The position numbers and the translations under genes are program-made. 64,000 nt of DNA. Origin: Legionella steelei. Lineage in GTDB: Bacteria; Pseudomonadota; Gammaproteobacteria; Legionellales; Legionellaceae. The notes under the pieces were generated by a model, which saw nothing but the letters and a program-made list of their open reading frames with translations, searched no databases and had not been told where the DNA came from. The stretch lies in contig NZ_LNYY01000021.1 in the NCBI RefSeq assembly GCF_001468005.1, positions 310,637 to 374,636 on the forward strand, read 5' to 3'. This document shows positions 34,308 through 50,628 of this stretch, one piece after another (positions within the stretch are counted from its first letter, which is position 1; the number at the start of each line of letters is the position of its first letter).

Positions 34308-37300
34308 ATGTATATCGAATCGAACCGATTAGTTTTTTCTCCTTCTGATCTTACTCAATTTATGGCAAGTCCTTTTGTATCTTGGATAGAGCATCTTGCC
34401 GTAGTGCATCCCGATTTATTGCCTGCACCTGATGAAAAAGATGAATTAATTGATGTATTGCAACATTTGGGAAATCAACATGAATTGGCTCTATTGGCTC
34501 TTTTTGAAAAACAAGGATTATCGGTTGTCAATTTGCGCCAACAAGCGAATTCTTATGACGCTACTTTAAGTGCAATGGAAGATGGCGCCGATGTTATTTA
34601 TCAAGCGCGTTTACAATTAGATCCATTTCAGGGCTATGCTGATTTTTTAATAAAAATACCTGGTAAAAGTCGATTTGGGAATTATTGTTATGAGGTCTGG
34701 GATACTAAGCTTGCTAAATCAGTGAAACCTAGTTTTTTGCTGCAATTGTGTTGCTATGTAGAAATGCTTGCTGCTATGCAAGGAGAGAGTTCGGAATACA
34801 TCACTGTCGTTTTGGGAAACCAGGAGCAAAAGCGTTTTCGTACCGCAGATTATTTTTATTTTTATCAAAATCTGAAACAACAGTTTTTATTGGCACATGA
34901 GCGTTTTAATCCCACTGCGTGTCCTGATCCTGCAGCATCTAAAAATTGGGGGCGTTGGAATACTTATGCTGAAGAGTTATTAGTTAAAGCAGATCATTTA
35001 ATCCAGGTCGCAACCATTACCTCTGGGCAAGTTAAAAAATTACATCAAGCAGGAATAAAGACTATGAGTGGTTTAGCTCAGGCAACGTGTTCCTGGGTAA
35101 AAGGGATAAAGCCCGAACGTTTTGTGCGTTTGCAGGCACAAGCTAAAATTCAAAAAGAAAGCAGTGATAAGGAAGTCCCTTTGTATCAATTGCTTCCCCT
35201 GATTTCAGGACAAAAACAGGGCTTGGCACTGTTACCTCCTGCATCGCCACGGGATATATTTTTTGATATTGAAGGGTTTCCGCTTGAAGAAGGTGGCTTG
35301 GAGTATCTTTGGGGAATTACCTATTTTGATGAAAAAGCACAGCGTCAGTATAAGGATTTTTGGGCTCATAATCCCGAACAGGAGAAAGAAGCTTTTCAGA
35401 CATTTGTGCATTGGGTTTATCAACGTTGGCAAGAAGATCCGAAAATGCATATTTATCATTATGCCAATTACGAAATTTCTGCATGCCGTCGATTAATGGG
35501 GCGATATGGCGTGTGTGAGGATGAGGTAGATCAGCTTTTACGCAATGAAGTATTTGTTGATTTATATAAGATTGTTAAAAGTGCTCTGATTATTGGAGAA
35601 CCACGCTATTCCATTAAAAATATAGAACATTTATATCGAGGTAAGCGTGATACGGCGGTGGGATCTGGAGGTGATTCTGTCGTTGTTTATGAGCATTGGC
35701 GAGAAAATCCCGATGGGGAAAATTGGCAAACCTCAAAAATATTAAATGACATTCGCACATACAATATTGATGATTGTAATTCCACTCAAGAATTGGTTGA
35801 GTGGCTCAGAGCGCGGCAAAATGAACAGGGTATAAATTACTTAGGTAAAACGGAACTTGTTGCACTGGAGGTTAAGGAAGAGTTGGGCGAGCGTATTCAA
35901 TTACGCGATCGATTGTTGGCGCAAGCAGAGCGTTTAAAGTCTGAGGGAAATATTGAGTTAGCTAAAATCAATCTGATTTTTGCATGGTCAATTGAATTTC
36001 ATCGACGTGAAGCCAAACCGGTGTTTTGGCGTATGTTTGAACGATTGGGTTTAACTGGAGAAGAGTTACTTGATGACATTGATTGCTTGGCCTACTGCCG
36101 ACGAACTGCGAAGCCAGCCTACAAACCTTCGCCCAGAGCCCGTAACCTGGTCTACGAATATTTTTTTGATCCGGAACAGGAGTTTAAAGGAAGTGCCAAA
36201 CAATATTTTATTCTAGGTAAGGAAACTGAAGAGGGTAGGGCTGCAGCAGCTAATTATTATGAAGACGATAGTGATCTGGAGCATGGAATTATTGCATTAC
36301 AAATGAAAGATGAGCCTGATGATCCGATTACTTTAATTCCCAATGAATATGTCGATCCTCATTCGATTCCTGAGGCGATCACGAAGCAGGCTACATCATT
36401 TGAGCAGGGACTACTTGCACACACAGCGATACTGGATTTTTTGAGCAAATCGTATCCACGAATTACAGATCATCAACAAGGAATGCCTATTGCACCAAGC
36501 CATCATCCTGAAGAACGATTGGCGGAAATGATGCATGCAGTTTTAAATTTAAAGAACAGTTATCTCACGCTTCAAGGCCCTCCTGGGGCAGGTAAAACAT
36601 ATACAGGAAAACATTTGATTGCCGAACTTGTGCAAAGAGGAAAAAAAATAGGTATTTCCTCAAACAGCCATAAGGCGATTAATAACTTGTTGATGAGTGC
36701 CGCTGCCTATTGCCAAAAGGAAGGAATAAAAGGTCACTTTGGCTGTACACGTAATACGGATGAGCAAATTGCGGCTTTAGACATTAACTTATTGGAGAAT
36801 AAACAGATCATTGAGTTTATCCAACCTGGATGTGTTGTCGGCACCACAGTTTGGGGTTTTGCTCGCGAAGAATTAGTTGATGCTTTTGATTACTTATTTA
36901 TTGACGAGGCAGGCCAGGTCAGTGTTGCTAATTTAATTGCGATGAGTCGTTCAACACGTAATATTATTTTAATGGGTGATCAAATGCAGTTAGGTCAACC
37001 ATCACAAGGAAGTCACCCCGAAGAAAGTGGTCTATCTATATTGGATTACTTATTGCATACAACCCCCACTATTCCTGACTCTATGGGCGTCTTTTTAGGT
37101 ACTACCTATAGAATGCATCCTGCAGTGAATCAGTTTATTAGTGATGCGATTTATGAGGGTAAACTGGAAACTGCTGCAGAAAATGAAGATCAATTAATAC
37201 AGGTTCCCAAGGGATATACGGGTGTTCTAGATAAAGAGGCAGGCATTATTCCCATACCTGTTTTTCATGAGGGAAATACTCAAGCCAGTGATGAAGAAGT

Positions 37301-37706
37301 AGAGCAGATTGTGTTATTAACCAAGGAGCTTTTGGGGAGAACCTTTAAGGAAAAAAATGGCTCGCAACGAGTGATCGGTTGGGATGATATTCTTTTTGTT
37401 GCCCCATACAATCATCAAGTAGGTAAATTAAAAACAGCACTAGGTGAACAAGCTAAAGTGGGAAGTGTGGATAAATTTCAAGGTCAGGAAGCACCAATTG
37501 TTTTTTTGAGTATGTGTGCCAGTAATGTGGATGAGTCTCCTCGAGGACTCAATTTTCTTTTTGATAAAAATAGAATTAACGTTGCGGTTTCAAGAGCCCA
37601 GTGTTTGGCAATTGTGGTCTATTCACCATCCTTGCTTGATGCGATTCCAACGAACGTCGAACAAATTGCGATGATGAATGTATTTTGTCAATTGGTAAAA
37701 AATTAG
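34308..37706 (+). CDS. TM0106-type RecB-like nuclease fused to SF1 helicase
   Basis: A 1,132-aa DNA-processing enzyme. The N-terminal PD-(D/E)xK nuclease (1-200) shows GYADFLIK, YEVWDTKLAK and a downstream LQLCCY motif. A DEDD/RNase-H-like domain (320-520) starts with DIFFDIEGFPLEEGG and contains HIYHYANYEISACRRL. The C-terminal superfamily-1 helicase has Walker A GPPGAGKTYTGKH (near 756), Walker B LFIDEAGQV (near 864), FLGTTYRMHP and VAVSRAQCL (motif VI). The family is widespread and resembles Dna2/Cas4-helicase fusions; its role is probably repair of DNA ends. Convergent with the polyketide synthase gene. Confidence 0.93.
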   Translation: MYIESNRLVFSPSDLTQFMASPFVSWIEHLAVVHPDLLPAPDEKDELIDVLQHLGNQHELALLALFEKQGLSVVNLRQQANSYDATLSAMEDGADVIYQARLQLDPFQGYADFLIKIPGKSRFGNYCYEVWDTKLAKSVKPSFLLQLCCYVEMLAAMQGESSEYITVVLGNQEQKRFRTADYFYFYQNLKQQFLLAHERFNPTACPDPAASKNWGRWNTYAEELLVKADHLIQVATITSGQVKKLHQAGIKTMSGLAQATCSWVKGIKPERFVRLQAQAKIQKESSDKEVPLYQLLPLISGQKQGLALLPPASPRDIFFDIEGFPLEEGGLEYLWGITYFDEKAQRQYKDFWAHNPEQEKEAFQTFVHWVYQRWQEDPKMHIYHYANYEISACRRLMGRYGVCEDEVDQLLRNEVFVDLYKIVKSALIIGEPRYSIKNIEHLYRGKRDTAVGSGGDSVVVYEHWRENPDGENWQTSKILNDIRTYNIDDCNSTQELVEWLRARQNEQGINYLGKTELVALEVKEELGERIQLRDRLLAQAERLKSEGNIELAKINLIFAWSIEFHRREAKPVFWRMFERLGLTGEELLDDIDCLAYCRRTAKPAYKPSPRARNLVYEYFFDPEQEFKGSAKQYFILGKETEEGRAAAANYYEDDSDLEHGIIALQMKDEPDDPITLIPNEYVDPHSIPEAITKQATSFEQGLLAHTAILDFLSKSYPRITDHQQGMPIAPSHHPEERLAEMMHAVLNLKNSYLTLQGPPGAGKTYTGKHLIAELVQRGKKIGISSNSHKAINNLLMSAAAYCQKEGIKGHFGCTRNTDEQIAALDINLLENKQIIEFIQPGCVVGTTVWGFAREELVDAFDYLFIDEAGQVSVANLIAMSRSTRNIILMGDQMQLGQPSQGSHPEESGLSILDYLLHTTPTIPDSMGVFLGTTYRMHPAVNQFISDAIYEGKLETAAENEDQLIQVPKGYTGVLDKEAGIIPIPVFHEGNTQASDEEVEQIVLLTKELLGRTFKEKNGSQRVIGWDDILFVAPYNHQVGKLKTALGEQAKVGSVDKFQGQEAPIVFLSMCASNVDESPRGLNFLFDKNRINVAVSRAQCLAIVVYSPSLLDAIPTNVEQIAMMNVFCQLVKN

Positions 37707-37734
37707 ATGGATATTGTGGTATTGGATAAGTATT

Positions 37735-37792
37735 TGTAGCTTGGGTGTAGTGCAGCGGAACCCGGGTTTCGTTGCGCTGCACCCAGGCTACA
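37735..37792. repeat. TGTAGC...GCTACA palindromic element, short form
   Basis: TGTAGCTTGGGTGTAGTGCAGCG pairs with CGCTGCACCCAGGCTACA (interrupted), with AACCCGGGTT at the centre. It sits exactly between the convergent helicase and polyketide synthase stops (28 and 13 bp away) and may act as a transcription barrier for both. Confidence 0.7.
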
Positions 37793-37805
37793 AATCTAAT
37801 TTCGT

Positions 37806-40800
37806 TTACCTTAGAAAATCTCCAAGAGCACATTCATCATTTTCTAATAACTGAGCCATTATTTTATTGAATGTATGCGCTATCTCATCTTTACAAGGTG
37901 GTGTTAATGGTCCATTGATGGATAGTTGGTACTGCCCATCCTGGTCTTTTGAAAATAAAATCCATAAAGAGCGGTTGCTTATCGGTCGATTCTCACTACT
38001 GTAATGACTTGGATACTCATAATTAAGATTTGCAAAATTTTTGTCAGTAACTATTTTACTAAAAAAAGAAGGTGTGATATTAACCAGGACCCTTAGCCTC
38101 TCGGGTTTTCTCAAAGGTATATTTAACTTAAGTAGTTGATTCAGTTTATTTTTGAACGAATTATTGTGAGTAACCGTTTGTGCCCAACTGAAATACTTGA
38201 TTAAATAATCAATGAGGATTGAATGTAATTTACTTTTTTTAAGATCCTTCTGCAGGAAGAACTTATTCCATACATAGTGTAAATAATGGCTTATTACCAG
38301 TCCTGCACCTTTAAACTCGCGATTTTTAATGATATGGGAGCATTTCTGGTAGGGTGCTGTTATTAGGAATTGCTCCTCAATAGATTTAATAAAATCAATA
38401 AAGTTGTCCTTCTCATTTAAGGTAAGATTTATTCTTTTGTATTCTACGAACACGCCTACTATGGAATTATAGTGACTTCCTTCTCTACCACTATGAATGA
38501 GAACAAACGGCATTTTCTTTTGCTGACTCAGTTTATAAAGAGCAATATGGCATGCAGCAATTAAGCCGGTACTGACATTAATATTTTTTGTTTTATGCCA
38601 TTCTATAAATTGTTCCACCTGATGTGAATCAAGAGGATAGTGGAATAAATACTTCTTTTGCTCGTCTGTATCAGACACATAATCTTTCGGTCTAAGTGAC
38701 AACATCTTAAAACTATGATTGTAGTGGCGCCAAAAATTAACTTTATCTTTTAGATTGGTTTCGTAAAGACGATTATTTTTTTTCACATAGTCAAGAAACG
38801 AGTCTTCTTCTGGCTTGTGAATCATTTTTTTACCACGGAAAAGCGCTTCATAGCATTTTTTGAATTGATCAAAGATAATCCCACATGAAGTTCCATCTAC
38901 TATGATGTGAGGCATCACAATATGTAACTCATGTAATTCGCTATTTATCTTATAAAGATATACGCGCATTAGTGGGGGCTCTGTTAAGGGAATGGCACTC
39001 ATCATATTGCTTTGAAACTCTTCATGCAGCACGGTGTGTTCGTTGCTTAATGAAATGTCTTCATAGATTAGCTTGAACAGTCCTTCTTTTCTCAATGTTT
39101 GTACCGGTACATCTTTATTAATACTCAACCAAAAAACACTATTTTGTTTTACAATAAAATCAAATGCCTGGGCCACATATTCTTTGTTAAGTGTGCCGTG
39201 TATCTGTAGCTGCGTACCCATATTATAAGGATGTCCCATTTTATTGAGCACCCAAAATACGTATTGAAAATCACACAGAGCAACTTCTTCAGCGATTGGC
39301 GATGCAGTAGGCGGCAGCGTTGGGGTATCCGTGACAAGTTTATCTAATTCATGAGCAATGTTTTTGGCGATTTTATCGATGCGGGGTTCATTAATAAAAT
39401 ACTCTATGGGCAGGCTTAGTGAGGGACAACCCAATTGGTCATGAACGCGGTTTCTTAATTCCAACGCCATGAGTGAGTCCATACCCATGGCGAACAAATC
39501 ATTTTTCAAACCCACCTCATCACGGTGTTCCAACCCCAAAACATCGGCAGCAATCGCGCTTAAGGTTTGGCTCAAGAAGCTGACTCGTTCTTTGGGGGAC
39601 TGCTGTTGCAACACGGTTATAGAGAGTTGATTGGCAGGCGATTTCCTCTCCATGAGTGCAGAGAACTCGCTGGGTTTTGACGAGTTTTTGAAATACACAT
39701 CCCAATGAATGGGGCAGACGACGATTTGTGGTACATGGCTTGGCAACAACACATCCAGCACGTCCATGCGCTCAGGAGGTAAAGGAATAAAACCGCGGTG
39801 CTCGAGTGCCTCAATGTTCTGCGCAGCCATACCCAAGGTGTGAAAAGCCCCCCAATTGATTGCCAGTGCCGGTAAACCTTGTTGGTGGCGCAGGTGCGCC
39901 AGGCCATCTAAAAATCCATTGGCGGCAACGTAGTTGGCCTGCCCTTTGGCGCCTAAAATAGAGGCCGCCGATGAAAAGAGCACAAAGCAATCCAGGTGCA
40001 GCTTTTGAGTGAGTTGATGCAAAATCAGTGCGCTGTTCATTTTTGCCTGCAGCACTTCATCGACGGTCTGCGCACTCAAATGCACCAGCAACTCATCGTG
40101 AATGACGCCTGCCAGATGAAAGACCCCTCTGAGTGGGTATGCGCTGCGCTCTATCTCTTGGATAAGCTGCTCCATCTGCGCTAGGTTACTGGCATCACAC
40201 ACCTGATGGGTGATGGACACCTGTTTTTTGCGCACCTGCTCGATGAACGCTTGTATGGACTCAGTGCATGCTGTGCGGCTGGTGATGATGAGGTGTTTGG
40301 CCCCGCGCGCGATGAGATACTCCATTAAGGGCTTGCCCAAACCACCGGTACCGCCGGTAATAAGGTAACTTGCTTCACGGTCGAATAATACCTGAGGCTC
40401 TGTAGGCACAGGCAGCTGTTTTTTCTTAAGTCTGGGCACATAAAGGGTATCGCGTACCGCAAATTGGGTTTCAGTACTCGTTGTATGCACGATATAACGT
40501 AACACGTCACTTAAGGTACTGTGTGCGTCTAAGTCAACGGTGTAATTTTTAGTAAATGCCAGCTCATTTCTAAAGCTTTTCCAAAACGCACTCGCCATGG
40601 TGTGGTACGGATTCACCCGGTCGGAGGTGTACTTGTCGTTGATGGCATAGGCGTTTTCGGTGACCAAGATAAAGCGTGCCGGCTGCTGTTGAAACATCTG
40701 TTGGCACCAATGCAGCAGCTCAGGGAACTGGTCTTGTTCGTAAAGCACCACGATGTTTTGCTGCGCTACCTCTGGAAATTGGCCTACCTCTTTGATGAGC

Positions 40801-43800
40801 TGATACTCAAGCCCGCCTAATACTTTTTCTGCGCGTACTTCATCACGGGCGATAACCCACAGCTTGGGCAGCTCGGCGGTACGAGACACCGTATTGTTGA
40901 GTGGATTCCAAGTGAGTTCGTACAGATGCTGTACGGCCAAGTCATCGGTGCTAACCTGCGGTGTAGGCGCCTTTTTATCCAGCCAAAATTCACGGCGTGC
41001 AAATGCATAGTTGGGCAACATCACTTTGTTGCATATCCCCGGGATGGCGGTGTAATAATACCGCCAATCCACATCGCCACCCTGTAGGTACTCGCGCACC
41101 AGGGCTGCAAGTTCCGGGGCGACATCCAGAATCTTTGTGGGCGCAGAGGATGTGACAACCAGACCCTGCTGCAGCAATTGACTGGCTTCAACCGTACTTT
41201 GGGCTACTACCGCCAAGCGATAAGCATAATGCTCGCGACAGGTGGCTGCGGTAAAGCAGATGTCAGCAAACGCATCGGAAGTGGTTGCTAAATACTGTTG
41301 ATAGCGTTGGGCCAAACCATCCAACGCATCCTGGCTCTTAGCAGAGAACACGAGGGCATTCGTTTGGGCGGTCATGTTTTTGGGCGGTGTTTGGGTAGGA
41401 AACTCCTGCACAATGACGTGGGCATTAGTACCACTAAAACCAAACGCATTGATGCCAGCGCATTTTAAGGGGGCTGTACTGTGCCAATCCATCGTGTGTA
41501 AGGCAAGACGGGTATTATCCAGTTGAATCTTTGGATTGAGGTGATGAAAATTAATGTTTTTATAGATTCTTCCTTTCTGTAAGCTCAAGATGACTTTAAT
41601 CATACTGGCCACACCGGCTGCACTTTCCAGATGTCCCAGATTGGTTTTCACAGCCCCCAGATACAAGGGATTGTCTGCACTGCGTTGTCCGCCATAGACC
41701 TGATTAATGGCATGCACCTCAATCGGGTCGCCAAGAGGCGTGCCGGTGCCGTGCGTCTCAATGTAGCTGATGTCACTACGCGCTAAAGTGCTCTGACCTA
41801 AAGCTTTGCGCATGACCGCTTCCTGACTTTTCCCATTAGGCACGGTGAGTCCTGCCGTCCTTCCATCATTACTGATGGCAGAGGCTTTAATCACCGCTAA
41901 AATCGGGTCTTTATCGCGCACGGCATCAGCAAGGCGTTTTAGAAATAACACCCCACATCCTTCCGCGCGCACATACCCATCGGCCTCTGCATCAAAGGTT
42001 TTGCATTGGCTTGTCAACGATAAGGCTTTTGCTTTGCACAGATTAACAATGCTTTCAGGACGCAACAACACATTCACCCCGCCGGCCAGCGCAAAATCGA
42101 TTTCCCGAGTTTTTAAGCTTTGGCAGGCATAATGAATCGCAACTAAGGAAGAAGAACACGCCGTATCAAAGCTCACTGCCGGTCCCTTGAAATCAAAGGT
42201 ATAGGTGACGCGCCCAGGAATCATATTCAATGCCTTACCCGTGACCGCATACATCCCCAGCTCATCAGGAGACAAGCCTATTTGTTCTAGTTGTGAATAA
42301 TACTCATGCGATGCACCCACTCCCGCAAAAACCCCAGTTAAGCTACCCCGTAAGGAGTGCACGCAGTAGTTGGCGTTTTCCAATGCCTGATAGCATTGTT
42401 CTAAAAAAAGACGTTGTTGTGGATCGATAAACGGCGCTTCTCGGGGGCTAATCCCAAAAAACTGCGCATCAAATGCTTTGATGTTGTCGATGAGCCCCAG
42501 TTTCGTGATGTAGGATTTGCCTGGGGCATCCGGATCAGGGTCGTAATATTTTTTATTGTCCCAACGTGCAAGGGGAATGTCCTGCACCCCACTTAGCCCT
42601 TGTTCGAGCAAGGTCTCAAAAGCTGCAACATCGGCGGCATTGGGTAGGGAACAACTCATGCTGATTATGGCAATTGAATCATCAGTATCTTCTGGTGATG
42701 ACCGCAACGCTTTCGTTTGCACAAGGTTCTTTTGCAATTCCGATTCAACATATTGGGCAAGTTTGTTTATGGAGGGATAATCAAAACCTATCGTGGCGGT
42801 TACATTAAGAACAGGTTGCAGCTTTTCCTTCAGCCTGGTCGCTATTTCAGTAACCATTAACGAATCAAAACCAAGCTCAAAAAATCCTTCGTGCTCCTCT
42901 AACTCTTCAGTTTCTAGTAATCCCAGGATTTTTTTACACAGTGTAGAGACCATATTCTTGCAGGCGATACTTTTTTGATTATCACCCATCTTCATATAAT
43001 CATTCAGCCATGGTGATGTACTTTCATTACTCTTATGCTCAACTCCAGCCAGATCATCAGCTAGATGCTGATAAAATAAAGGCCGAGGTTTTGACACAAA
43101 ATCCAGCATAAACGAGAGGTATTCTGGAGATATAATGGTGACATGGCTTAATGGGCTACTGATTAAGAGATTAATGAACGCGCGGCCTTGATCATTATGA
43201 ATGAATGCTTGTTTTAGACCTTGATCGCGTGCTCGTTTTTCTGCCATCCCCGCTTCAGCCCAAGGCCCCCATTGAATTGCTGTACCTACCAAGCCCAAAC
43301 GTCGGCGCTCTGCGATTAGGGCATCTAAAAAACTATTGGTGCCACTATAGACTGACTCTTTATTGCTTCCAAATACCGAGGAAATAGAAGAGTAGACGAT
43401 AAAAAAATCCAGATCGCAGTGTTGGCTTAATTCATGTAAATACCAGCCGCCTTTTATCTTGGCAGAAAATAAAGAATCAATGTCGTCCTCTTGGTGTGCA
43501 AGCAATGGCGCATTCATTGAGATGCCAGCTGCATGAACAATGCCCTTTAGCAAACCATCCGCATTACTCTCTAGCAATAAACTATGTAGTTTTTCTTTAT
43601 CGGTAATATCTAAACCTACTGTACGAATTATTTGATTTGGATAAAAAGATTGAATTTTTTTAATCCGTGCTTTTAATTCAGGATTATCCACATGCCTTGA
43701 GACAAGAATTAATTCTTTGGCACCAACAGATAGCAAGGCTTGCGCAGTTACCAGACCTAAACCACCGGTCCCACCCGTAATAAGGTAGCGGCCTTCTCCT

Positions 43801-46208
43801 CGTAACGTTCTTTTCTCGTCAGGTAGTGTGGTCCTCTTTAAACGGGAGACCCATCGTTGGCCATTACGATACGTCACGACATGCTCGTAATTTTGGCCAT
43901 GATTATAATGAATTTCATTCATTATCTGTGTCGAATAATGACCTGCATCATGCTTGTCCAGATCGATGAGCATCGTTTGATATTGGGGTAACTCTAAAGC
44001 TAAAGTCTTGCAAAACCCCAAAAGTACACTGCAGTCAAGATTCAAAATGTCGCCACTAAGCTCTGGTATCGTGTTGGTAGTGAGGATTATGAGCCGTAAT
44101 TCAATTGTTTTATGTTGTAACTCTTGAACCAGGTTCAATAATTTTTTTAGCGCGTTCTTTTGCAAATCGATATGCGTCTCAATATCCTTTGCTGTCACTG
44201 ACTCGAAGTCTGCTGCAAAAATAATCCCATCCAATATGTCTAATGAAGGGTTATCCTCATCCAAGACAATGGACAATCCCTGCTCTATAAACCCAGGAGC
44301 TAATTGTTTGGCTCCTATTAACAACCAAGGTTTGTCTGATGGTTTGCGCTGATGTATCTCAGCGACTTGTTGCTGCCATTCCAGGTGAAAGATCCAATCT
44401 TTAGGTGCCGGTACATCGATTGCTGTGTCATTATTCTCTTTATCATGCCAATAAGTTTTTCTATCAAAAAAATACAAGGGCAAATCAACTTGCTGGTATA
44501 TCATTTTGTTTTTATCGAACCTGATCGTGTCTCCTGCGAGAAAATGCTCATAAACTTGTTGCGCATCGTGTTCGATTATTTTTAGATCTTTATTGCGGGT
44601 TACTTTATTCAGCACATACGTTTTTGCTTCAATTTTTTTAATTAATTCTTCTTTATTATCAGCAATGATGGCACAGCGAAATTTATAATGGTCTCGACAA
44701 TTGATTAAGGTAGAACACACATCGTGCAGGCTTGCAGAGGATTCCTTTAAATAGCATAAGTGACTTGCCAGCATCTGCTTTAATGAATATTCACTATGTG
44801 CAGAAAGTACAAAACATTCAGGTTGATTGTGATGCACTGTGGATGAGTTTAATGACACATCAGGCGGCTCTTCAATGAGCGCACTCACATTAGTACCCGT
44901 AAAACCAAAATTGGATACTTGCGTGTATCGTTTTTTATTAGCCTGCTTCGCAAAAGGTATCGCTTGAATTGGGAGAAGTGCCGGGATACTCTCGGGATCA
45001 ATCGATGGGCTTGGGGTCGTGTAATGCAAATTAGCAGGAATGAGCTCATGATTTAATGCAGCAACCACTTTAATGACTGAGGCAATGCCTGATGCAGAAA
45101 TCGTATGTCCTAGATTACTTTTTAATGCACCGACAATTAATGGATTGTCTTTGGTGTGATGGCCTTGGTGTATGTGTTGAATCGCATTAAACTCAACAGA
45201 ATCGCCCATGATCGTACCAGTGCCATGGGTTTCAATATAGTCAATGTCACTTGCTGCTAAATGCGCTTGTGCTAATACGGCCTGATGCATTGTAATTTGC
45301 GCCTCGATGTTAGGCGCAGCCATACCCATTCCTCCACCACCATCTTGATTCATGACAATGCTTTTAATCACTGCGAGGATTTTATTATTGTCTTTGAGCG
45401 CGTCACGAAGTCGTTTTATAACCACTACAGCACAACCTTCGCTACGTGCATAACCATCGGCGGCAGCATCAAAGCTGCTGCATTGGCCAAGAGCGGAAAG
45501 CATGTTCGCTTTCGTTACCCCTATAAAAATTTCAGGACACAGGCTCAGATGGACTCCGCCAACAATTGCCATATCACACTGCTGATTTCTTAATGCCATC
45601 GTGGCAAGATAAAGTGCCGACAGTGAAGAAGAGCAAGCGGTATCGACCGTCATGCATGGGCCTTTTAAATTAAGAAAGTGACTCAGTCTTCCTGGCGCCG
45701 CGCTATCAGCAGAACCAATATAGGTATAGGCATTAAATGTGATCTTATCTTTATAATTCAGTTGGCTATAATCGTGCGTAGAAACACCACAATAGACCCC
45801 AGTGTTGGAATTTTTTAATGAATCAATTGGTATGTTGGCATGATTTAAAGCACGAACAGAAACCTCTAAAAACAAACGTTGTTGCGGATCCATTTGTTTG
45901 GCTTCAGTGGGCGATATTTTAAAAAAAGCAGCATCGAATAATTGAGGATCATGCAAAAAACCGCCCTTACGGCTTACTATTTTATTTTCTTTCTGCCTAT
46001 CTGGATCATAATATTGATTAATATCCCAGCGATTTTCAGGTACGTCTTTAATTGAAGTCTGTTCGTTGAGTAACATCTCATAAAACGCATCGACATCTTC
46101 AACATCAGCATTAATCCCAGGGAACTGACAATTCATGCCAATAATAGCTATCGGCTCATTCAGGATGTTGTTTAGGCTATTTTGATGTCCTTTTTTTGTC
46201 TGCATCAT
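37806..46208 (-). CDS. Two-module AT-less type I polyketide synthase with C-terminal condensation-like domain
   Basis: A 2,800-aa megasynthase. Module 1: ketosynthase (18-455; C192, H328, H368), no acyltransferase, ketoreductase (800-1000; Y954), carrier protein (S1116 in GFDSLM). Module 2: ketosynthase (1177-1610; C1351, H1486, H1526), ketoreductase (1945-2130; Y2093), carrier protein (S2245 in GMDSLM). Residues 2300-2800 look like a condensation/PapA-type acyltransferase with HxxxDG (H2434-D2438, PHIIVDG). After each ketosynthase, a post-AT-like linker (LPLYFFDRKTYW, LPNYAFARREFW) remains though the AT is gone, so malonyl loading must come in trans. No dehydratase, enoylreductase or thioesterase. 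GAGG precedes the start. DNA for module 2 is richer in G+C than its flanks. Last gene of an operon with two methyltransferases. Confidence 0.95.
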   Translation of the reverse strand: MMQTKKGHQNSLNNILNEPIAIIGMNCQFPGINADVEDVDAFYEMLLNEQTSIKDVPENRWDINQYYDPDRQKENKIVSRKGGFLHDPQLFDAAFFKISPTEAKQMDPQQRLFLEVSVRALNHANIPIDSLKNSNTGVYCGVSTHDYSQLNYKDKITFNAYTYIGSADSAAPGRLSHFLNLKGPCMTVDTACSSSLSALYLATMALRNQQCDMAIVGGVHLSLCPEIFIGVTKANMLSALGQCSSFDAAADGYARSEGCAVVVIKRLRDALKDNNKILAVIKSIVMNQDGGGGMGMAAPNIEAQITMHQAVLAQAHLAASDIDYIETHGTGTIMGDSVEFNAIQHIHQGHHTKDNPLIVGALKSNLGHTISASGIASVIKVVAALNHELIPANLHYTTPSPSIDPESIPALLPIQAIPFAKQANKKRYTQVSNFGFTGTNVSALIEEPPDVSLNSSTVHHNQPECFVLSAHSEYSLKQMLASHLCYLKESSASLHDVCSTLINCRDHYKFRCAIIADNKEELIKKIEAKTYVLNKVTRNKDLKIIEHDAQQVYEHFLAGDTIRFDKNKMIYQQVDLPLYFFDRKTYWHDKENNDTAIDVPAPKDWIFHLEWQQQVAEIHQRKPSDKPWLLIGAKQLAPGFIEQGLSIVLDEDNPSLDILDGIIFAADFESVTAKDIETHIDLQKNALKKLLNLVQELQHKTIELRLIILTTNTIPELSGDILNLDCSVLLGFCKTLALELPQYQTMLIDLDKHDAGHYSTQIMNEIHYNHGQNYEHVVTYRNGQRWVSRLKRTTLPDEKRTLRGEGRYLITGGTGGLGLVTAQALLSVGAKELILVSRHVDNPELKARIKKIQSFYPNQIIRTVGLDITDKEKLHSLLLESNADGLLKGIVHAAGISMNAPLLAHQEDDIDSLFSAKIKGGWYLHELSQHCDLDFFIVYSSISSVFGSNKESVYSGTNSFLDALIAERRRLGLVGTAIQWGPWAEAGMAEKRARDQGLKQAFIHNDQGRAFINLLISSPLSHVTIISPEYLSFMLDFVSKPRPLFYQHLADDLAGVEHKSNESTSPWLNDYMKMGDNQKSIACKNMVSTLCKKILGLLETEELEEHEGFFELGFDSLMVTEIATRLKEKLQPVLNVTATIGFDYPSINKLAQYVESELQKNLVQTKALRSSPEDTDDSIAIISMSCSLPNAADVAAFETLLEQGLSGVQDIPLARWDNKKYYDPDPDAPGKSYITKLGLIDNIKAFDAQFFGISPREAPFIDPQQRLFLEQCYQALENANYCVHSLRGSLTGVFAGVGASHEYYSQLEQIGLSPDELGMYAVTGKALNMIPGRVTYTFDFKGPAVSFDTACSSSLVAIHYACQSLKTREIDFALAGGVNVLLRPESIVNLCKAKALSLTSQCKTFDAEADGYVRAEGCGVLFLKRLADAVRDKDPILAVIKASAISNDGRTAGLTVPNGKSQEAVMRKALGQSTLARSDISYIETHGTGTPLGDPIEVHAINQVYGGQRSADNPLYLGAVKTNLGHLESAAGVASMIKVILSLQKGRIYKNINFHHLNPKIQLDNTRLALHTMDWHSTAPLKCAGINAFGFSGTNAHVIVQEFPTQTPPKNMTAQTNALVFSAKSQDALDGLAQRYQQYLATTSDAFADICFTAATCREHYAYRLAVVAQSTVEASQLLQQGLVVTSSAPTKILDVAPELAALVREYLQGGDVDWRYYYTAIPGICNKVMLPNYAFARREFWLDKKAPTPQVSTDDLAVQHLYELTWNPLNNTVSRTAELPKLWVIARDEVRAEKVLGGLEYQLIKEVGQFPEVAQQNIVVLYEQDQFPELLHWCQQMFQQQPARFILVTENAYAINDKYTSDRVNPYHTMASAFWKSFRNELAFTKNYTVDLDAHSTLSDVLRYIVHTTSTETQFAVRDTLYVPRLKKKQLPVPTEPQVLFDREASYLITGGTGGLGKPLMEYLIARGAKHLIITSRTACTESIQAFIEQVRKKQVSITHQVCDASNLAQMEQLIQEIERSAYPLRGVFHLAGVIHDELLVHLSAQTVDEVLQAKMNSALILHQLTQKLHLDCFVLFSSAASILGAKGQANYVAANGFLDGLAHLRHQQGLPALAINWGAFHTLGMAAQNIEALEHRGFIPLPPERMDVLDVLLPSHVPQIVVCPIHWDVYFKNSSKPSEFSALMERKSPANQLSITVLQQQSPKERVSFLSQTLSAIAADVLGLEHRDEVGLKNDLFAMGMDSLMALELRNRVHDQLGCPSLSLPIEYFINEPRIDKIAKNIAHELDKLVTDTPTLPPTASPIAEEVALCDFQYVFWVLNKMGHPYNMGTQLQIHGTLNKEYVAQAFDFIVKQNSVFWLSINKDVPVQTLRKEGLFKLIYEDISLSNEHTVLHEEFQSNMMSAIPLTEPPLMRVYLYKINSELHELHIVMPHIIVDGTSCGIIFDQFKKCYEALFRGKKMIHKPEEDSFLDYVKKNNRLYETNLKDKVNFWRHYNHSFKMLSLRPKDYVSDTDEQKKYLFHYPLDSHQVEQFIEWHKTKNINVSTGLIAACHIALYKLSQQKKMPFVLIHSGREGSHYNSIVGVFVEYKRINLTLNEKDNFIDFIKSIEEQFLITAPYQKCSHIIKNREFKGAGLVISHYLHYVWNKFFLQKDLKKSKLHSILIDYLIKYFSWAQTVTHNNSFKNKLNQLLKLNIPLRKPERLRVLVNITPSFFSKIVTDKNFANLNYEYPSHYSSENRPISNRSLWILFSKDQDGQYQLSINGPLTPPCKDEIAHTFNKIMAQLLENDECALGDFLR

Positions 46209-46234
46209 GTTACCTCATTAGATTATGCAAGATG

Positions 46235-47056
46235 TCATTCTGCGCTTTTCTTTTGTAACAAATAACAAAGATACTGCTGTTGCCCATTGATAAACCCATT
46301 GTAAGTAACTGAACCCTTCACCGCTGATATGTCACGAACCGCTTGCCGCCATATGGGTGAATACGTTGCATTAATATGGGCTTTCCGTCTATCTGACAGA
46401 CGAGTTAACGAATCAAGCACCTGAGGTGTAATATCACTTCGCTCAAGCACTTGTAATCCGGAGGCACTGATGCATTGGTCTAACAGTGCTACCTCCGAAG
46501 ACGGGCGTAGATCGGTAAAAGCCATATAACCATTAGGTCGCAGTACACGCCAGACTTCACTCAGAAATTGCTCCATTGAAGGATAACAATGAGATGATTC
46601 TACATTGACAAGCACATCAGCACTATGGTCAGGAATAGGTAGGGAGTCTGCACGCCCTTGAATCCAACACGCATTGTCCCATTTGGAGTTACGCTGGCAG
46701 ATTGCAATTGCTTTATCAGACAAATCAATGCCTATATAAGAATGTGGTTTTTTATACTGTAATAAGAAAATGCCACCAGCGCCCTGACCACATCCGACCT
46801 CAACAATATCTTTGTTTTCTAAATCGATATCTCTAACGACGCGATTGTAAAGCTGAATAAAATATCGATTAGGCTCATCCTCACGATTTAACGCTAAGGT
46901 AGTCTCATCATGATAACCATAATTCAGAAAAACGTATTGTTTCGACTTGTTATTCGAGGCAAATTTATTATAAAGCCAGCGAATCAATGCTATGCGTAAA
47001 ATAGGTGACAACTGCATTAAAAATCGATGTATTTTTCTAAGTTTACTTGCTTTCAT
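46235..47056 (-). CDS. SAM methyltransferase similar to phthiotriol dimycocerosate methyltransferase
   Basis: A 273-aa class I methyltransferase. The SAM site is DIVEVGCGQGAGGIFLL and YIGIDLSDKAIAICQ. Other landmarks are EDEPNRYFIQLYNRVV, DVLVNVESSHCYPSMEQFL and EVWRVLRPNGYMAFTDLRP. The landmark order and wording match my memory of mycobacterial Rv2952, which O-methylates phthiotriol in PDIM lipid synthesis. It starts 5 bp from the FkbM gene and ends 26 bp before the polyketide synthase, so one operon. It probably methylates a hydroxyl on the polyketide product. No signal peptide, but the N-terminus is basic (MKASKLRKIHRFLMQLSP) and may touch the membrane. Confidence 0.92.
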   Translation of the reverse strand: MKASKLRKIHRFLMQLSPILRIALIRWLYNKFASNNKSKQYVFLNYGYHDETTLALNREDEPNRYFIQLYNRVVRDIDLENKDIVEVGCGQGAGGIFLLQYKKPHSYIGIDLSDKAIAICQRNSKWDNACWIQGRADSLPIPDHSADVLVNVESSHCYPSMEQFLSEVWRVLRPNGYMAFTDLRPSSEVALLDQCISASGLQVLERSDITPQVLDSLTRLSDRRKAHINATYSPIWRQAVRDISAVKGSVTYNGFINGQQQYLCYLLQKKSAE

Positions 47057-47060
47057 TGTA

Positions 47061-47907
47061 TTAGACTGCTCTTATCATATATTGGTTCCAACCCAACTTT
47101 TCATAAATAGGATTTCTATTGATTCGAGTAAGATAACCTTGTTCTCGCAAATATGCAGCAAGATACTCTACTCTATTGTCTATATCATGCACTTTGGTAC
47201 TTAACTGCTTAATCATAAAAAACTGTTTAAGCTCAATACTTTTTACAACTTCAAATTCTGTGCCTTCAACATTAATTTTCAAAAAATCGATATGATTTAT
47301 CGCATTTCTTTCGATAAAATGCCCAAGTGATATCAGTTTACATAAAATTTTTGTTTCCATTGTTCGATTTTTAAAGTTCTTTTTAATCAAGTATGGTCGC
47401 ATAAAAGGTAAAAATTTCATTTGATAATACAATAAGTTATTCTGATATCGAGCAATTTTTAATAAATTATCATAATCTAATAAATGATTATAATTAGAGA
47501 TCATTTTATCCTGAGGCTTATAGGTTGCTGTCGTAAGATCTTTCCCAAAAAAGGTAAATTCAATAAGACAATCTTTAGCCACATCAGCAACGCCTACGTT
47601 GTATAGGTGGCACTCCTCTTCAAATGGCGTCAAATACTTTTTGAGGCATTGAGGAATAGGCTCAAAACTATAAATCAATGCATTATGTTTACATTGACGT
47701 AGAGCGAACAGTGGAAAAAGCCCAATATGTGCTCCTACGTCCATAATGATCGAACCGGGACTTAAAGTGAGATAATCTGACAAATAAGTTTTTTGATAAA
47801 AAAATTTCATAGATTAAACCACGCGTTTCATACTCATTTACAAAATGCAATTTACCAATTGTAAATTGTTTATTTAAAATTGTATTAGACATGAACGAGT
47901 GTCCCAT
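47061..47907 (-). pseudogene. FkbM-family methyltransferase interrupted by 1-nt homopolymer frameshift
   Basis: The main frame (47061-47810, 249 aa) has the FkbM signature SIIMDVGAHIGLFPLFALRQ, IYSFEPIPQCLKKY and HIDFLKINVEGTEFEVVKSI. It begins abruptly inside the domain. The missing N-terminus is in the next frame from ATG 47907: TIGKLHFVNEYETRGLIYEIF. The two join at a run of seven A on the plus strand (47798-47804). With six, the protein reads NEYETRGLIYEIFYQKTYLS through to the SAM site, about 281 aa, as in normal FkbM enzymes. So this is a frameshift mutation, a phase-variable tract or a base-calling error. An ATG just after the run (47810) could give a shortened protein. FkbM enzymes O-methylate sugars or polyketides. 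Confidence 0.85.
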
Positions 47908-48405
47908 TATTAAAGTTTGTCTATAAATTAGAGCCTATAGTTCTGGACAAGCTTCCATCTTACCGCCATTAATATGAGATTATTTTGGAAAATGAGAGGA
48001 CCTTTTAAAACTTATAATAATCTAGCCTTTCTATAAGTAGTATAGTCTAGGTCTTCTTGTTTAGACAGAAGCGCTATTCCTAGTTTATATTTAGGTCATT
48101 GCTAAGGTATTAGAACGTGATGAATACAATGTTGCAGATTTAATTCGTGAGTAATTCGCATTCTTGCGAATCTCAAAAATTTAGCCACGCCCTGCATCCT
48201 GTATATGTCCGGTAATTTGTTGACAAAAAAACTGAGGGATTGTCACTTTTTCGTATGGATTATCAATTGTCTCTTATCAGATAGGGATTGTCTCAATAGA
48301 CATATTTTTAAACAAATATATACTTTATTTAATGGTTATGAATTATGACTGGTTCACTTTGATTGAGATGAAGTGGGCAAAGCAAAAAATAAGGATATGT
48401 GAATT
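47908..48405. other. Intergenic region between PKS operon and copA
   Basis: 498 bp between divergent units, AT-rich, with no supported frame. It contains two GGATTGTC copies (about 48236 and 48285) and a TTGACA near 48220 without a good -10. No CueR-like palindrome was recognised. Promoters for the polyketide operon and copA must lie here. Confidence 0.5.
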
Positions 48406-50628
48406 ATGAAACATGGGCATGGTGAGCACGAACACCATAAAACGCTTTCTACGCCCGAGAAAGCGCATGAATCGTGTCATCAACATTATCAGATGCATAA
48501 GCAATCTAACTCGAATGCACAGCGAACTGTGACTGGAATTTATACATGTCCTATGCATCCAGAAATCCGTCAATCGGGTCCCGGACATTGTCCCATTTGT
48601 GGTATGGCCTTAGAGCCAGAAACTACTTCTGCAGAACAAGAAAATCTTGAATACAAAAGCATGAAGTATCGATTTTGGCTGGCACTGATTTTGAGTATCC
48701 CGGTTGTTGTATTAGAAATGGGCGGACATTTGTTCCATTTTATTTCAGCGAATCATTCTGCTTGGGCTCAGTTTGTTTTAGCAACCCCTGTCGTTTTATG
48801 GTGTGGATTTCCTTTTTTCCAGCGCGGCTTTCTTTCACTGAAAACACGTCACCTGAATATGTTTACTCTCATTGCAATGGGGATAGGTGTTGCCTGGGTT
48901 TACAGTAGCATAGGTCTATTGTTTCCTGGTCTTTTTCCTGTAGCATTCCGCCATCAAGGAATAATCAATGTTTATTTTGAAGCAGCAGCAGTCATCACCA
49001 CTTTGGTTTTGCTCGGACAAGTTCTGGAATTAAAAGCACGAGAGCAAACGGGCAGTGCTATCCGTGCTTTATTGAATTTAGCGCCTGAAAGTGCTCGCCG
49101 AATTGATCAGGACGGTAACGAAGAGGAGGTAACCCTAGATCATGTGCGGGTAGGCGATCAGTTGCGAGTTCGTCCAGGTGAAAAAATTCCCGTGGATGGA
49201 GAGGTGCTCGAAGGACACAGTCATGTGGATGAATCCATGGTTACTGGAGAGTCGATGCCTATAAGCAAAGATGCGGGGGCAAAAGTAATTGGTGCGACCA
49301 TAAACCAGAATGGTAGTTTCGTGATGAGGGCAGAACATGTAGGCAGTGACACCATGCTTTCACATATTGTACAGATGGTAAGTGAAGCACAACGCAGCCG
49401 TGCCCCCATTCAGCGATTGGCTGATACCATTTCAGGTTGGTTTGTTCCTGCAGTAATCTTGATTGCAATACTGGCATTTATTATTTGGTTTTTCTTTGGT
49501 CCAGCACCTGCATTGAGTTATGGCTTGCTAGCAGGCGTTTCAGTGCTCATTATTGCTTGTCCTTGTGCCTTAGGCCTCGCAACGCCCATGTCCATTATGG
49601 TTGGTGTGGGCAAAGGCGCGCAAAATGGAGTGTTAGTCAAAAATGCTGAAGCACTGGAGCAGATGGAAAAGGTTAACGTACTCGTGGTTGATAAAACTGG
49701 TACTCTGACGCTGGGACATCCTCAACTCACCCAAATTATTACTGACAAAGAGTTTGAAACCAATGAAATATTGGCTTTGGCGGCTGCATTGGAACATCAG
49801 AGCGAGCATCCGCTTGCGCATGCAATCATGACTGCTGCAAAAGAAAAACAGTTATCGCTTGCTACTGTATCGGATTTTGAAGCAGTTTCTGGGAAAGGGG
49901 TTATTGCTAAGGTTGATGGTGTAAAAATTGCATTGGGTAATTTAAAACTGATGCAAGAATATGGAACAAGTAACACCGTACTGATTCAACATGCAGATGA
50001 ATTACGCGCACAAGGAGCAACTGTAATGTTTCTGGCGGTCGATGGTGAAACGATTGCGATTCTAGCAGTTGAGGATCCCATTAAACCGAGTACATCGAAG
50101 GCTATAGATGAACTGCAAAAAAATGGAATCAAGGTCTATATGTTGACTGGAGACAGTCAAGCAACGGCAAAATCTGTTGCACAGCAATTAGGAATAAACA
50201 CCGTGATTGCTGAAATTATGCCTGAAGATAAGCGTCGAGTGGTCAGTGAGTTGAAAGAAAAAGGTCTGATTGTGGCGATGGCAGGCGATGGCGTAAATGA
50301 TGCGCCCGCGTTGGCCATTGCTGATATTGGTATTGCAATGGGCACTGGTACGGATGTTGCGATTGAGAGTGCTGGTATTACTTTGTTGCATGGTGATTTG
50401 AGTGGCATCGTTAAAGCACATCACTTATCGCGCGCGACCATGCGTAACATCCGTCAGAATTTATTTTTTGCTTTTGTTTATAACGGATTGGGTGTGCCCT
50501 TGGCTGCTGGAGTGTTGTATCCGCTAACTGGGCTATTACTCAATCCTATCATTGCGGCAACCGCGATGGCATTAAGTTCTGTATCTGTGATTTTTAATGC
50601 GCTCAGGTTACGGGGGCTTAAGTTATAA
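48406..50628 (+). CDS. copA: Copper-exporting P1B-type ATPase CopA
   Basis: A 740-aa inner-membrane Cu(I) pump. A His-rich head ([11 protein letters not shown]) is followed by the heavy-metal-binding motif [13 protein letters not shown]...[12 protein letters not shown] in place of the usual ferredoxin-like domain. Eight helices, the actuator TGES loop (MVTGESMP), copper site C385-P-C387 ([10 protein letters not shown]), phosphorylation D429 (DKTGTLT), SEHPLAHA and the hinge [11 protein letters not shown] are all intact. From memory it matches L. pneumophila CopA nearly end to end, which supports the genus call. AAGGA lies upstream of the ATG. It probably protects against copper in the phagosome or water systems. 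Confidence 0.96.

What the first reader, a model, noticed from the sequence alone, without database searches (positions are those of the whole stretch)
37806..47907. PDIM-like locus: AT-less PKS with PapA-type end, plus phthiotriol-type and FkbM methyltransferases
Three minus-strand genes in one operon combine a two-module polyketide synthase, a methyltransferase whose landmark motifs (EDEPNR, VNVESSHCYP, RVLRPNGY) match mycobacterial Rv2952, and an FkbM O-methyltransferase. The synthase ends in an HxxxDG acyltransferase-like domain comparable in role to PapA5. In mycobacteria the same kinds of enzymes make and esterify phthiocerol dimycocerosates and methylate their sugars. A Legionella analogue could make a methylated, esterified surface lipid that acts on the host. 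I know of no described product for this layout.
Basis: partly seen in the sequence, partly recalled or inferred. Interest (0 to 1): 0.78.

Follow-up and report, generated by a model that had tools for sequence, protein, structure and literature searches.

The report
Legionella polyketide synthase with swapped ending
A Legionella gene cluster that looked like a mycobacterial surface-lipid locus is instead a local form of a polyketide enzyme common in the genus, and a stretch of DNA that seems to have flipped between two inverted gene copies has given it a different final, product-releasing domain.

Summary
The three genes are real: a 2,800-aa AT-less polyketide synthase (PKS; KS-KR-ACP-KS-KR-ACP-C), a methyltransferase and an FkbM methyltransferase whose first ~28 residues lie in another frame. 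The methyltransferase is nearest to the Rv2952 and Mtf2 profiles (209 and 197 bits; next 53) but below their cut-offs. The terminal domain is an NRPS-type condensation domain (bacitracin synthetase 99 bits; PapA5 12.5 bits, E 0.42). The PDIM parallel holds only for the methyltransferase.

C domains of this family occur in 36 of 45 Legionella genomes searched. In 18 of 18 other genomes with one within 3 kb of the copper ATPase, it reads towards the ATPase; the window's PKS reads away. Its terminal domain (HxxxDG) groups with copies beside the helicase in four relatives, not with the HxxxDD domains ending the L. bozemanae and L. steigerwaltii synthases, whose KS domains are 89-92% identical to the window's. 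Nineteen codons of another C-domain end survive beside the ATPase (48095-48154). Best reading: the cassette was inverted between divergent PKS copies, swapping the release domain, and the second copy was then deleted. Three relatives keep two copies with identical runs up to 376 bp. Whether inversion still switches within strains is untested.

The parts
37806..46208 (-). AT-less type I PKS, 2,800 aa, KS1-KR1-ACP1-KS2-KR2-ACP2-C
   Evidence: ORF; Pfam
44859..46157 (-). KS1 (residues 18-450)
   Evidence: 92% identical to L. bozemanae and L. steigerwaltii
43029..43808 (-). KR1 (residues 801-1060)
42729..42968 (-). ACP1 (residues 1081-1160)
41394..42680 (-). KS2 (residues 1177-1605); the homologous stretch is present as inverted copies in G042 and, up to a contig end, in G017
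39669..40388 (-). KR2 (residues 1941-2180)
39309..39593 (-). ACP2 (residues 2206-2300)
37809..39308 (-). Terminal condensation domain, helicase-side HxxxDG type (residues 2301-2800); affinity changes at its start
46235..47056 (-). Rv2952/Mtf2-like methyltransferase, 273 aa
47061..47810 (-). FkbM-family methyltransferase, 249-aa ORF without the first ~28 residues of the relatives
47811..47893 (-). Stretch that reads like the missing FkbM N-terminus, in another frame
   Evidence: by eye; relatives' ORFs of 282-293 aa
47894..48096 (.). FkbM upstream region; in G017 it leads to the start of a divergent short PKS gene
   Evidence: part of a 393-400 bp match at 86-89% nt to L069, L017 and L019
48095..48154 (+). 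Scar: last 19 codons and stop of a C-domain end that reads towards the ATPase
   Evidence: best match 81% nt over 69 bp, the L. bozemanae PKS end
48295..48405 (+). Region before the ATPase, as found after the C-domain end in relatives
   Evidence: 77-78% nt over 222 alignment columns that run on into the ATPase
34308..37706 (+). Left flank: RecB-like nuclease/helicase gene ('helicase' here), neighbour of the HxxxDG copies in the subclade
   Evidence: TIGR03491 251 bits vs cut-off 97 and AAA_12
48406..50628 (+). Right flank: copper-translocating P-type ATPase
   Evidence: TIGR01511 611 bits vs cut-off 397

Best explanation
The locus encodes a short AT-less PKS that takes an acyl starter through two malonyl extensions, each followed by ketoreduction, and releases it through a terminal NRPS-type condensation domain onto an amine or alcohol. 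A linked Rv2952/Mtf2-like enzyme probably O-methylates a chain hydroxyl. It belongs to a C-terminated PKS family found in most Legionella searched, often beside this ATPase. In the window the synthase is a chimera. An ancestor carried two divergent PKS copies, one ending beside the helicase (HxxxDG) and one beside the ATPase. Recombination between the inverted KS2-KR2-ACP2 copies flipped the FkbM-MT-module-1 cassette and put the HxxxDG ending on the full-length synthase. The ATPase-side copy was then deleted, leaving 19 codons. Shown by comparison: domain content, orientation difference, differing affinity of terminal domain and rest, scar, identical tracts in relatives. Inferred: reciprocal inversion as the event, order of events, all chemistry.
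For: No AT; no PF00698 match lies in the PKS locus of the window genome or of the 18 genomes scanned, the window's included. Family in 36 of 45 genomes; the helicase-ATPase stretch of ten relatives was read. In 18 of 18 other genomes with a C-domain match within 3 kb of the ATPase homologue it reads towards it (counted from coordinates). Window vs L. bozemanae full PKS: KS1 92%, KS2 89%, ACP2 75%, C 54%; window C vs helicase-side copies of four relatives 72-84%. The change lies at about residue 2300. C tree: window with those four 100/99; grouping it with the eight HxxxDD/DA rows rejected, p-AU 1.2e-13. KR1-ACP1 tree: window with the full PKSs of the same four relatives 100/100. Scar with homologous flanks on both sides. 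The two copies share identical runs of 376 and 237 bp (G042), 212 bp (G004) and 86 bp (G017), with contig breaks there.
Against: No genome was seen in both orientations; reciprocal inversion is inferred from single isolates, and no relative's two-copy locus is assembled without a break. The KS1 test of the window with the ten larger PKSs was borderline (p-AU 0.051). The scar's type is unresolved: it scores 15 of 22 positions with L. bozemanae and also with a larger HxxxDG PKS (G032), only 6 with L. steigerwaltii, and it has a weaker nucleotide match (80% over 49 bp, E 8e-6) to the helicase-side end of G017. HxxxDG versus HxxxDD is not a clean mark of side: the own paralogue has HxxxDD but branches with the HxxxDG set. 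Further rearrangements exist: an orphan C' 26 kb beyond the ATPase in L. steigerwaltii, an orphan C about 122 kb from the rest in G017. FkbM is frame-broken. Acyltransferase, starter and acceptor are not identified.
Confidence: 0.7

Rival explanations
1. The C domain was replaced by gene conversion or horizontal exchange, and the operon was turned round by an unrelated rearrangement.
For: Mosaic identity between copies in G042 (69-75% patches beside 98-100%) shows that conversion occurs; other rearrangements exist in G040 and G017.
Against: Orientation, type of C domain and flank change together, the change in affinity lies at the end of the duplicated module, and the scar of a second copy sits where the inversion model puts it.
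Confidence: 0.15
2. A PDIM-like system: the synthase makes a phthiocerol-like chain that a PapA5-type end esterifies, and the two methyltransferases decorate it or its sugars.
For: Methyltransferase profile score of 209 bits for NF045823.
Against: Terminal domain matches NRPS C domains, PapA5 only at E 0.42; no cis AT; FkbM not found with the pair in 3 of 8 genomes.
Confidence: 0.05
3. A decaying locus: the window copy is no longer functional, after loss of the second PKS and the frame break in FkbM.
For: Frame-broken FkbM, lost second copy; in G017 the short PKS is broken in its KR2 region.
Against: The 2,800-codon PKS and the methyltransferase are intact ORFs, with KS, KR and ACP motifs read by eye, and the domains of modules 1-2 are 70-92% identical to those of L. 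bozemanae and L. steigerwaltii.
Confidence: 0.1

Closest known systems
Legionella PKS with C-terminal condensation domain (cluster I, L. pneumophila; Tobias et al. 2016, PMC5126622: abstract, section 11 part 1, section 20 and found passages read; figures and supplements not seen)
   Same: A Legionella PKS ending in an NRPS-type C domain, said there to be capable of chain release
   Different: 'Inversion', 'FkbM' and 'methyltransferase' occur 0 times in its main text; whether cluster I is this family by sequence was not tested here
Rv2952 and Mtf2 lipid O-methyltransferases (NF045823, NF045825)
   Same: Best two profiles for the window methyltransferase
   Different: Below both equivalog cut-offs; different partner synthase
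BurF ester-forming condensation domain of malleicyprol (PMC12304814; passages read)
   Same: C domain in a PKS-containing synthetase that joins a fatty acid-polyketide chain to a second molecule
   Different: BurF ends in a reductase domain; here C is the last domain and the acceptor is unknown
hsdS inversion system of Streptococcus pneumoniae (PMC4948785; search listing with start of abstract only)
   Same: DNA inversions among several homologous genes
   Different: There heterogeneity is seen within a clonal population; here only differences between species are shown

Membership tests
PDIM biosynthesis locus | Rv2952-type methyltransferase over the equivalog cut-off | tested here: not met
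   NF045823 209 vs cut-off 300 bits; best profile nevertheless
PDIM biosynthesis locus | PapA5-type acyltransferase | tested here: not met
   NRPS C domain 98.9 bits, PapA5 12.5 bits E 0.42; by sequence only, no fold comparison
PDIM biosynthesis locus | PKS modules with their own AT (recalled for PpsA-E) | tested here: not met
   No PF00698 in the PKS
AT-less (trans-AT) PKS | KS modules without AT | tested here: met
AT-less (trans-AT) PKS | A discrete AT that serves it | tested here: inconclusive
   18 of 18 PKS genomes scanned have at least two PF00698 matches; a discrete 276-aa AT matches in 40 of 45 genomes, among them 8 of the 9 without the C-domain PKS, and is not beside the PKS in the two genomes read
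NRPS-type condensation domain | PF00668 over its cut-off and an HxxxDG motif | tested here: met
   150.3 vs 30.6 bits; PHIIVDG
Invertible (phase-variable) locus | Inverted homologous copies around the cassette | tested here: inconclusive
   Seen in relatives: on one contig in G042 and G017 up to contig ends, on separate contigs in G004; no longer present in the window
Invertible (phase-variable) locus | Both orientations within one strain or species | not testable with these tools
   one genome per species, no reads
FkbM methyltransferase | TIGR01444 over cut-off | tested here: met
   51.5 vs 37.7 bits; N-terminus in another frame

The most novel reading that the evidence does not exclude
In the L. 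bozemanae group the paired inverted PKS copies are a live switch: homologous recombination flips the FkbM-MT-module-1 cassette and toggles whether the full-length synthase ends in an HxxxDG or an HxxxDD terminal domain, so that a population makes two differently released products; the window strain is locked in one state by deletion of the second copy.
Probability: 0.2. Interest if true: 0.85.

Novelty: new variant of a known kind. Interest (0 to 1): 0.55.

Why it matters
Modular synthases are thought to evolve by duplication and recombination (general knowledge), but a case in which the flanks, relatives with the donor copies and a deletion scar can all be compared is useful, because the steps can be read and the predicted switch can be checked in public reads. 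It also shows that a 'PDIM-like' call from motifs alone can mislead: one enzyme is lipid-methyltransferase-like, while the release domain is of the peptide-synthetase kind. A L. pneumophila PKS was reported to reduce fusion of its vacuole with lysosomes (Shevchuk 2014, known here only from its title and from Tobias 2016). Whether that gene is of this family was not tested, so a role in host interaction is open.

Tried and rejected
Rejected: PapA5-type end; UbiE-type methyltransferase; short inverted repeats within the window as recombination sites (16 pairs; the strong one is a palindrome at 37732-37795 between the convergent ends of helicase and PKS, the others are 14-25 bp). The methyltransferase in the class: 5 of 274 genomes match at E <= 1e-25, the window's own and 4 outside the genus; in the stretches fetched for those 4 no ORF matched the PKS. 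A specific trans-AT could not be named. KS1 and KR1-ACP1 trees were weakened by rows that did not fit (the truncated MAG2055 in KS1, the own paralogue in KR1-ACP1); KS1 was rebuilt without MAG2055 for the test, KR1-ACP1 was not rebuilt. Structure prediction of the terminal domain was not accepted in nine tries, so no fold search was made. Literature on PKS and DNA inversion: searches (at least 3 of 4 terms: 97 papers, 20 listed, 1 of the 20 holding 'polyketide synthase'; at least 4 of 6 terms: 1 paper, on Penicillium) showed no such case in what was listed; the library holds open-licence papers only.

Full report
What is there. The finding's three minus-strand genes exist: PKS 37806-46208, methyltransferase 46235-47056, FkbM 47061-47810. 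Pfam gives the PKS two KS, two KR, two ACP, KS-AT linkers and a terminal PF00668 Condensation domain (150 bits), and no acyltransferase. The methyltransferase scores 209 bits for NF045823 (Rv2952 type, cut-off 300) and 197 for NF045825 (Mtf2, cut-off 400); the next profile has 53 and UbiE 41. FkbM passes its domain cut-off, but FkbM ORFs of four relatives are 282-293 aa, and the window's matching N-terminal stretch lies in another frame (by eye). The flanks are a RecB-like nuclease/helicase gene ('helicase' below) and a copper-type P-type ATPase.

The PDIM reading. A profile of the terminal domain (window and three named Legionella relatives) finds bacitracin synthetase 3 at 98.9 bits and 21 further chains at E below 0.01, nearly all NRPS-type or hybrid by their names; PapA5 (8s6l) comes at 12.5 bits, E 0.42. 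So the release domain is of the NRPS condensation kind by sequence. Its fold was not predicted. The methyltransferase parallel stands as kinship, not as orthology.

Organism and distribution. The nearest named records are L. bozemanae (90% in the methyltransferase) and L. steigerwaltii (91%); a third is a Legionella MAG (71% over part). By equal contig lengths the first two are G004 and G040. The methyltransferase is in 8 of 45 genus genomes at E <= 1e-30, in all 8 beside a PKS of this family. FkbM is present in 5 of the 8 (G000, G004, G017, G040, G042) and was not found in the stretches fetched for G002, G014 and G024. G014 has a TauD-type dioxygenase and another methyltransferase there; G002 has ORFs of matching size, not scanned. 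The terminal domain is in 36 of 45 genomes at E <= 1e-60. I read the stretch between helicase and ATPase in ten of these: each holds one PKS of 3,753-3,777 aa with three KS and the same C-terminal order (10 of 10). In 8 of the 10 it has a neighbour gene that matches the window methyltransferase at 26-33%; in G041 the neighbour is of another O-methyltransferase family (PF00891), and in G007 neither was seen. The methyltransferases beside the G005 PKS and beside the window genome's own paralogous PKS have the Rv2952-type profile as best NCBIfam match (86.6 and 85.7 bits; 2 of 2 scanned). The PKSs of G005 and G014 carry a dehydratase domain before KR2 that the window lacks; by eye its first motif lacks the usual histidine (motif recalled).

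Orientation. In 18 of 18 other genomes with a C-domain match within 3 kb of the ATPase homologue, the C domain reads towards the ATPase (counted from coordinates: G001, G004, G005, G006, G007, G009, G010, G011, G017, G019, G021, G022, G025, G031, G032, G033, G040, G041). The window's PKS reads away from it and ends beside the helicase. In G004, G017 and G042 a module 2, or part of it, with its C domain stands beside the helicase; in G040 only an orphan C domain stands there. On the ATPase side G004 and G040 have the full PKS and G017 an orphan C domain; in G042 the right-hand copy lies on another contig, next to genes that flank the ATPase elsewhere, without an ATPase.

Chimera. The window's C domain is 72-84% identical to the four helicase-side copies and 54-56% to the C domains of the full L. 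bozemanae and L. steigerwaltii synthases, whose KS1 is 92% and KS2 89% identical to the window's. Along the protein the change lies at about residue 2300, the ACP2-C border. In a tree of 24 C domains the window groups with the four at 100/99; holding it with the eight ATPase-side and other-site rows is rejected (p-AU 1.2e-13). In the KR1-ACP1 tree it groups with the full PKSs of the same four relatives at 100/100. The KS1 tree separates the ten larger PKSs from the other rows at 100/100, but the direct test of holding the window with them gave p-AU 0.051, which does not reject it. All five helicase-side domains (the window's included) and all ten larger PKS domains have HxxxDG; of the eight other rows seven have HxxxDD and one HxxxDA. 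The own paralogue has HxxxDD but branches with the HxxxDG set, on a long branch, so the motif is not a clean mark.

Scar. Window 47701-48096 is FkbM and its upstream region, 86-89% identical to three relatives, up to about 20 bp before the start of G017's divergent short PKS gene. Then 48095-48154 on the plus strand encodes VIAKVLERDEYNVADLIRE and a stop, and later the region before the ATPase follows (77-78% over 222 columns). In BLAST the scar matches PKS ends: L. bozemanae (81% over 69 bp), the G017 orphan (76% over 85), G032 (85% over 54) and G041 (81% over 48); a weaker match is the helicase-side end of G017 (80% over 49 bp, E 8e-6). In an ungapped comparison of 22 positions the eight ATPase-side ends score 15 (G004), 15 (G032), 12 (G017), 6 (G040) and 1-2 (four whose tails are out of step), and the five helicase-side ends, also out of step, 3-4. 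So a C-domain end once read towards the ATPase here; which type it was is open.

Recombination in relatives. The two copies share identical runs of 376 and 237 bp in G042, 212 bp in G004 and 86 bp in G017, while other windows of the same copies fall to 47% (G042) and 58% (G004); contigs break at or near these runs in all three. G042's middle contig shows yet another order (full PKS divergent, FkbM-MT before the short PKS). Joins across the breaks were not made, so the two-copy state is inferred from pieces in each relative.

How it probably works. From the domain order and established PKS chemistry (recalled): an acyl starter enters at KS1, two malonyl units are added with a discrete AT, both keto groups are reduced, and the terminal C domain passes the dihydroxyacyl chain to an amine or alcohol; the BurF C domain forms an ester in a comparable way (PMC12304814, passages). 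The methyltransferase would act on a hydroxyl. None of this is tested.

Verdict. A genus-wide synthase family with an unusual local history: most likely an inversion-made chimera with a scar. New variant of a known kind; a live switch in relatives is possible and can be checked in reads.

Noticed in passing
G000:C19:824301-831344 (L068 8301-15344): The same genome holds a paralogous PKS (2,347 aa, KS-KS-KR-ACP-ACP-C) whose first KS is 84% identical to the window's KS1, with an adjacent methyltransferase of the same best profile and an HxxxDD end; conversion between paralogues is possible.
   Followed up: partly
window 37732-37795: A palindrome between the convergent ends of helicase and PKS; similar 32-37 bp pieces recur in L017, L064 and L072, so it looks like a dispersed repeat; no second copy in the window at up to 3 mismatches.
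   Followed up: partly
G000:C19:1507959-1540000: A large multi-gene PKS cluster with a discrete AT over the FabD cut-off, possibly of the legioliulin kind (guess, not tested).
   Followed up: no
L019 1634-7107 (G017): The divergent short PKS of G017 is broken into four ORFs around KR2, with near-identical direct repeats of 113-258 bp there.
   Followed up: no
L028 (MAG Legionella sp. 2055-AUS-E): In this metagenome contig the methyltransferase lies after the PKS instead of before it, at the contig end.
   Followed up: no
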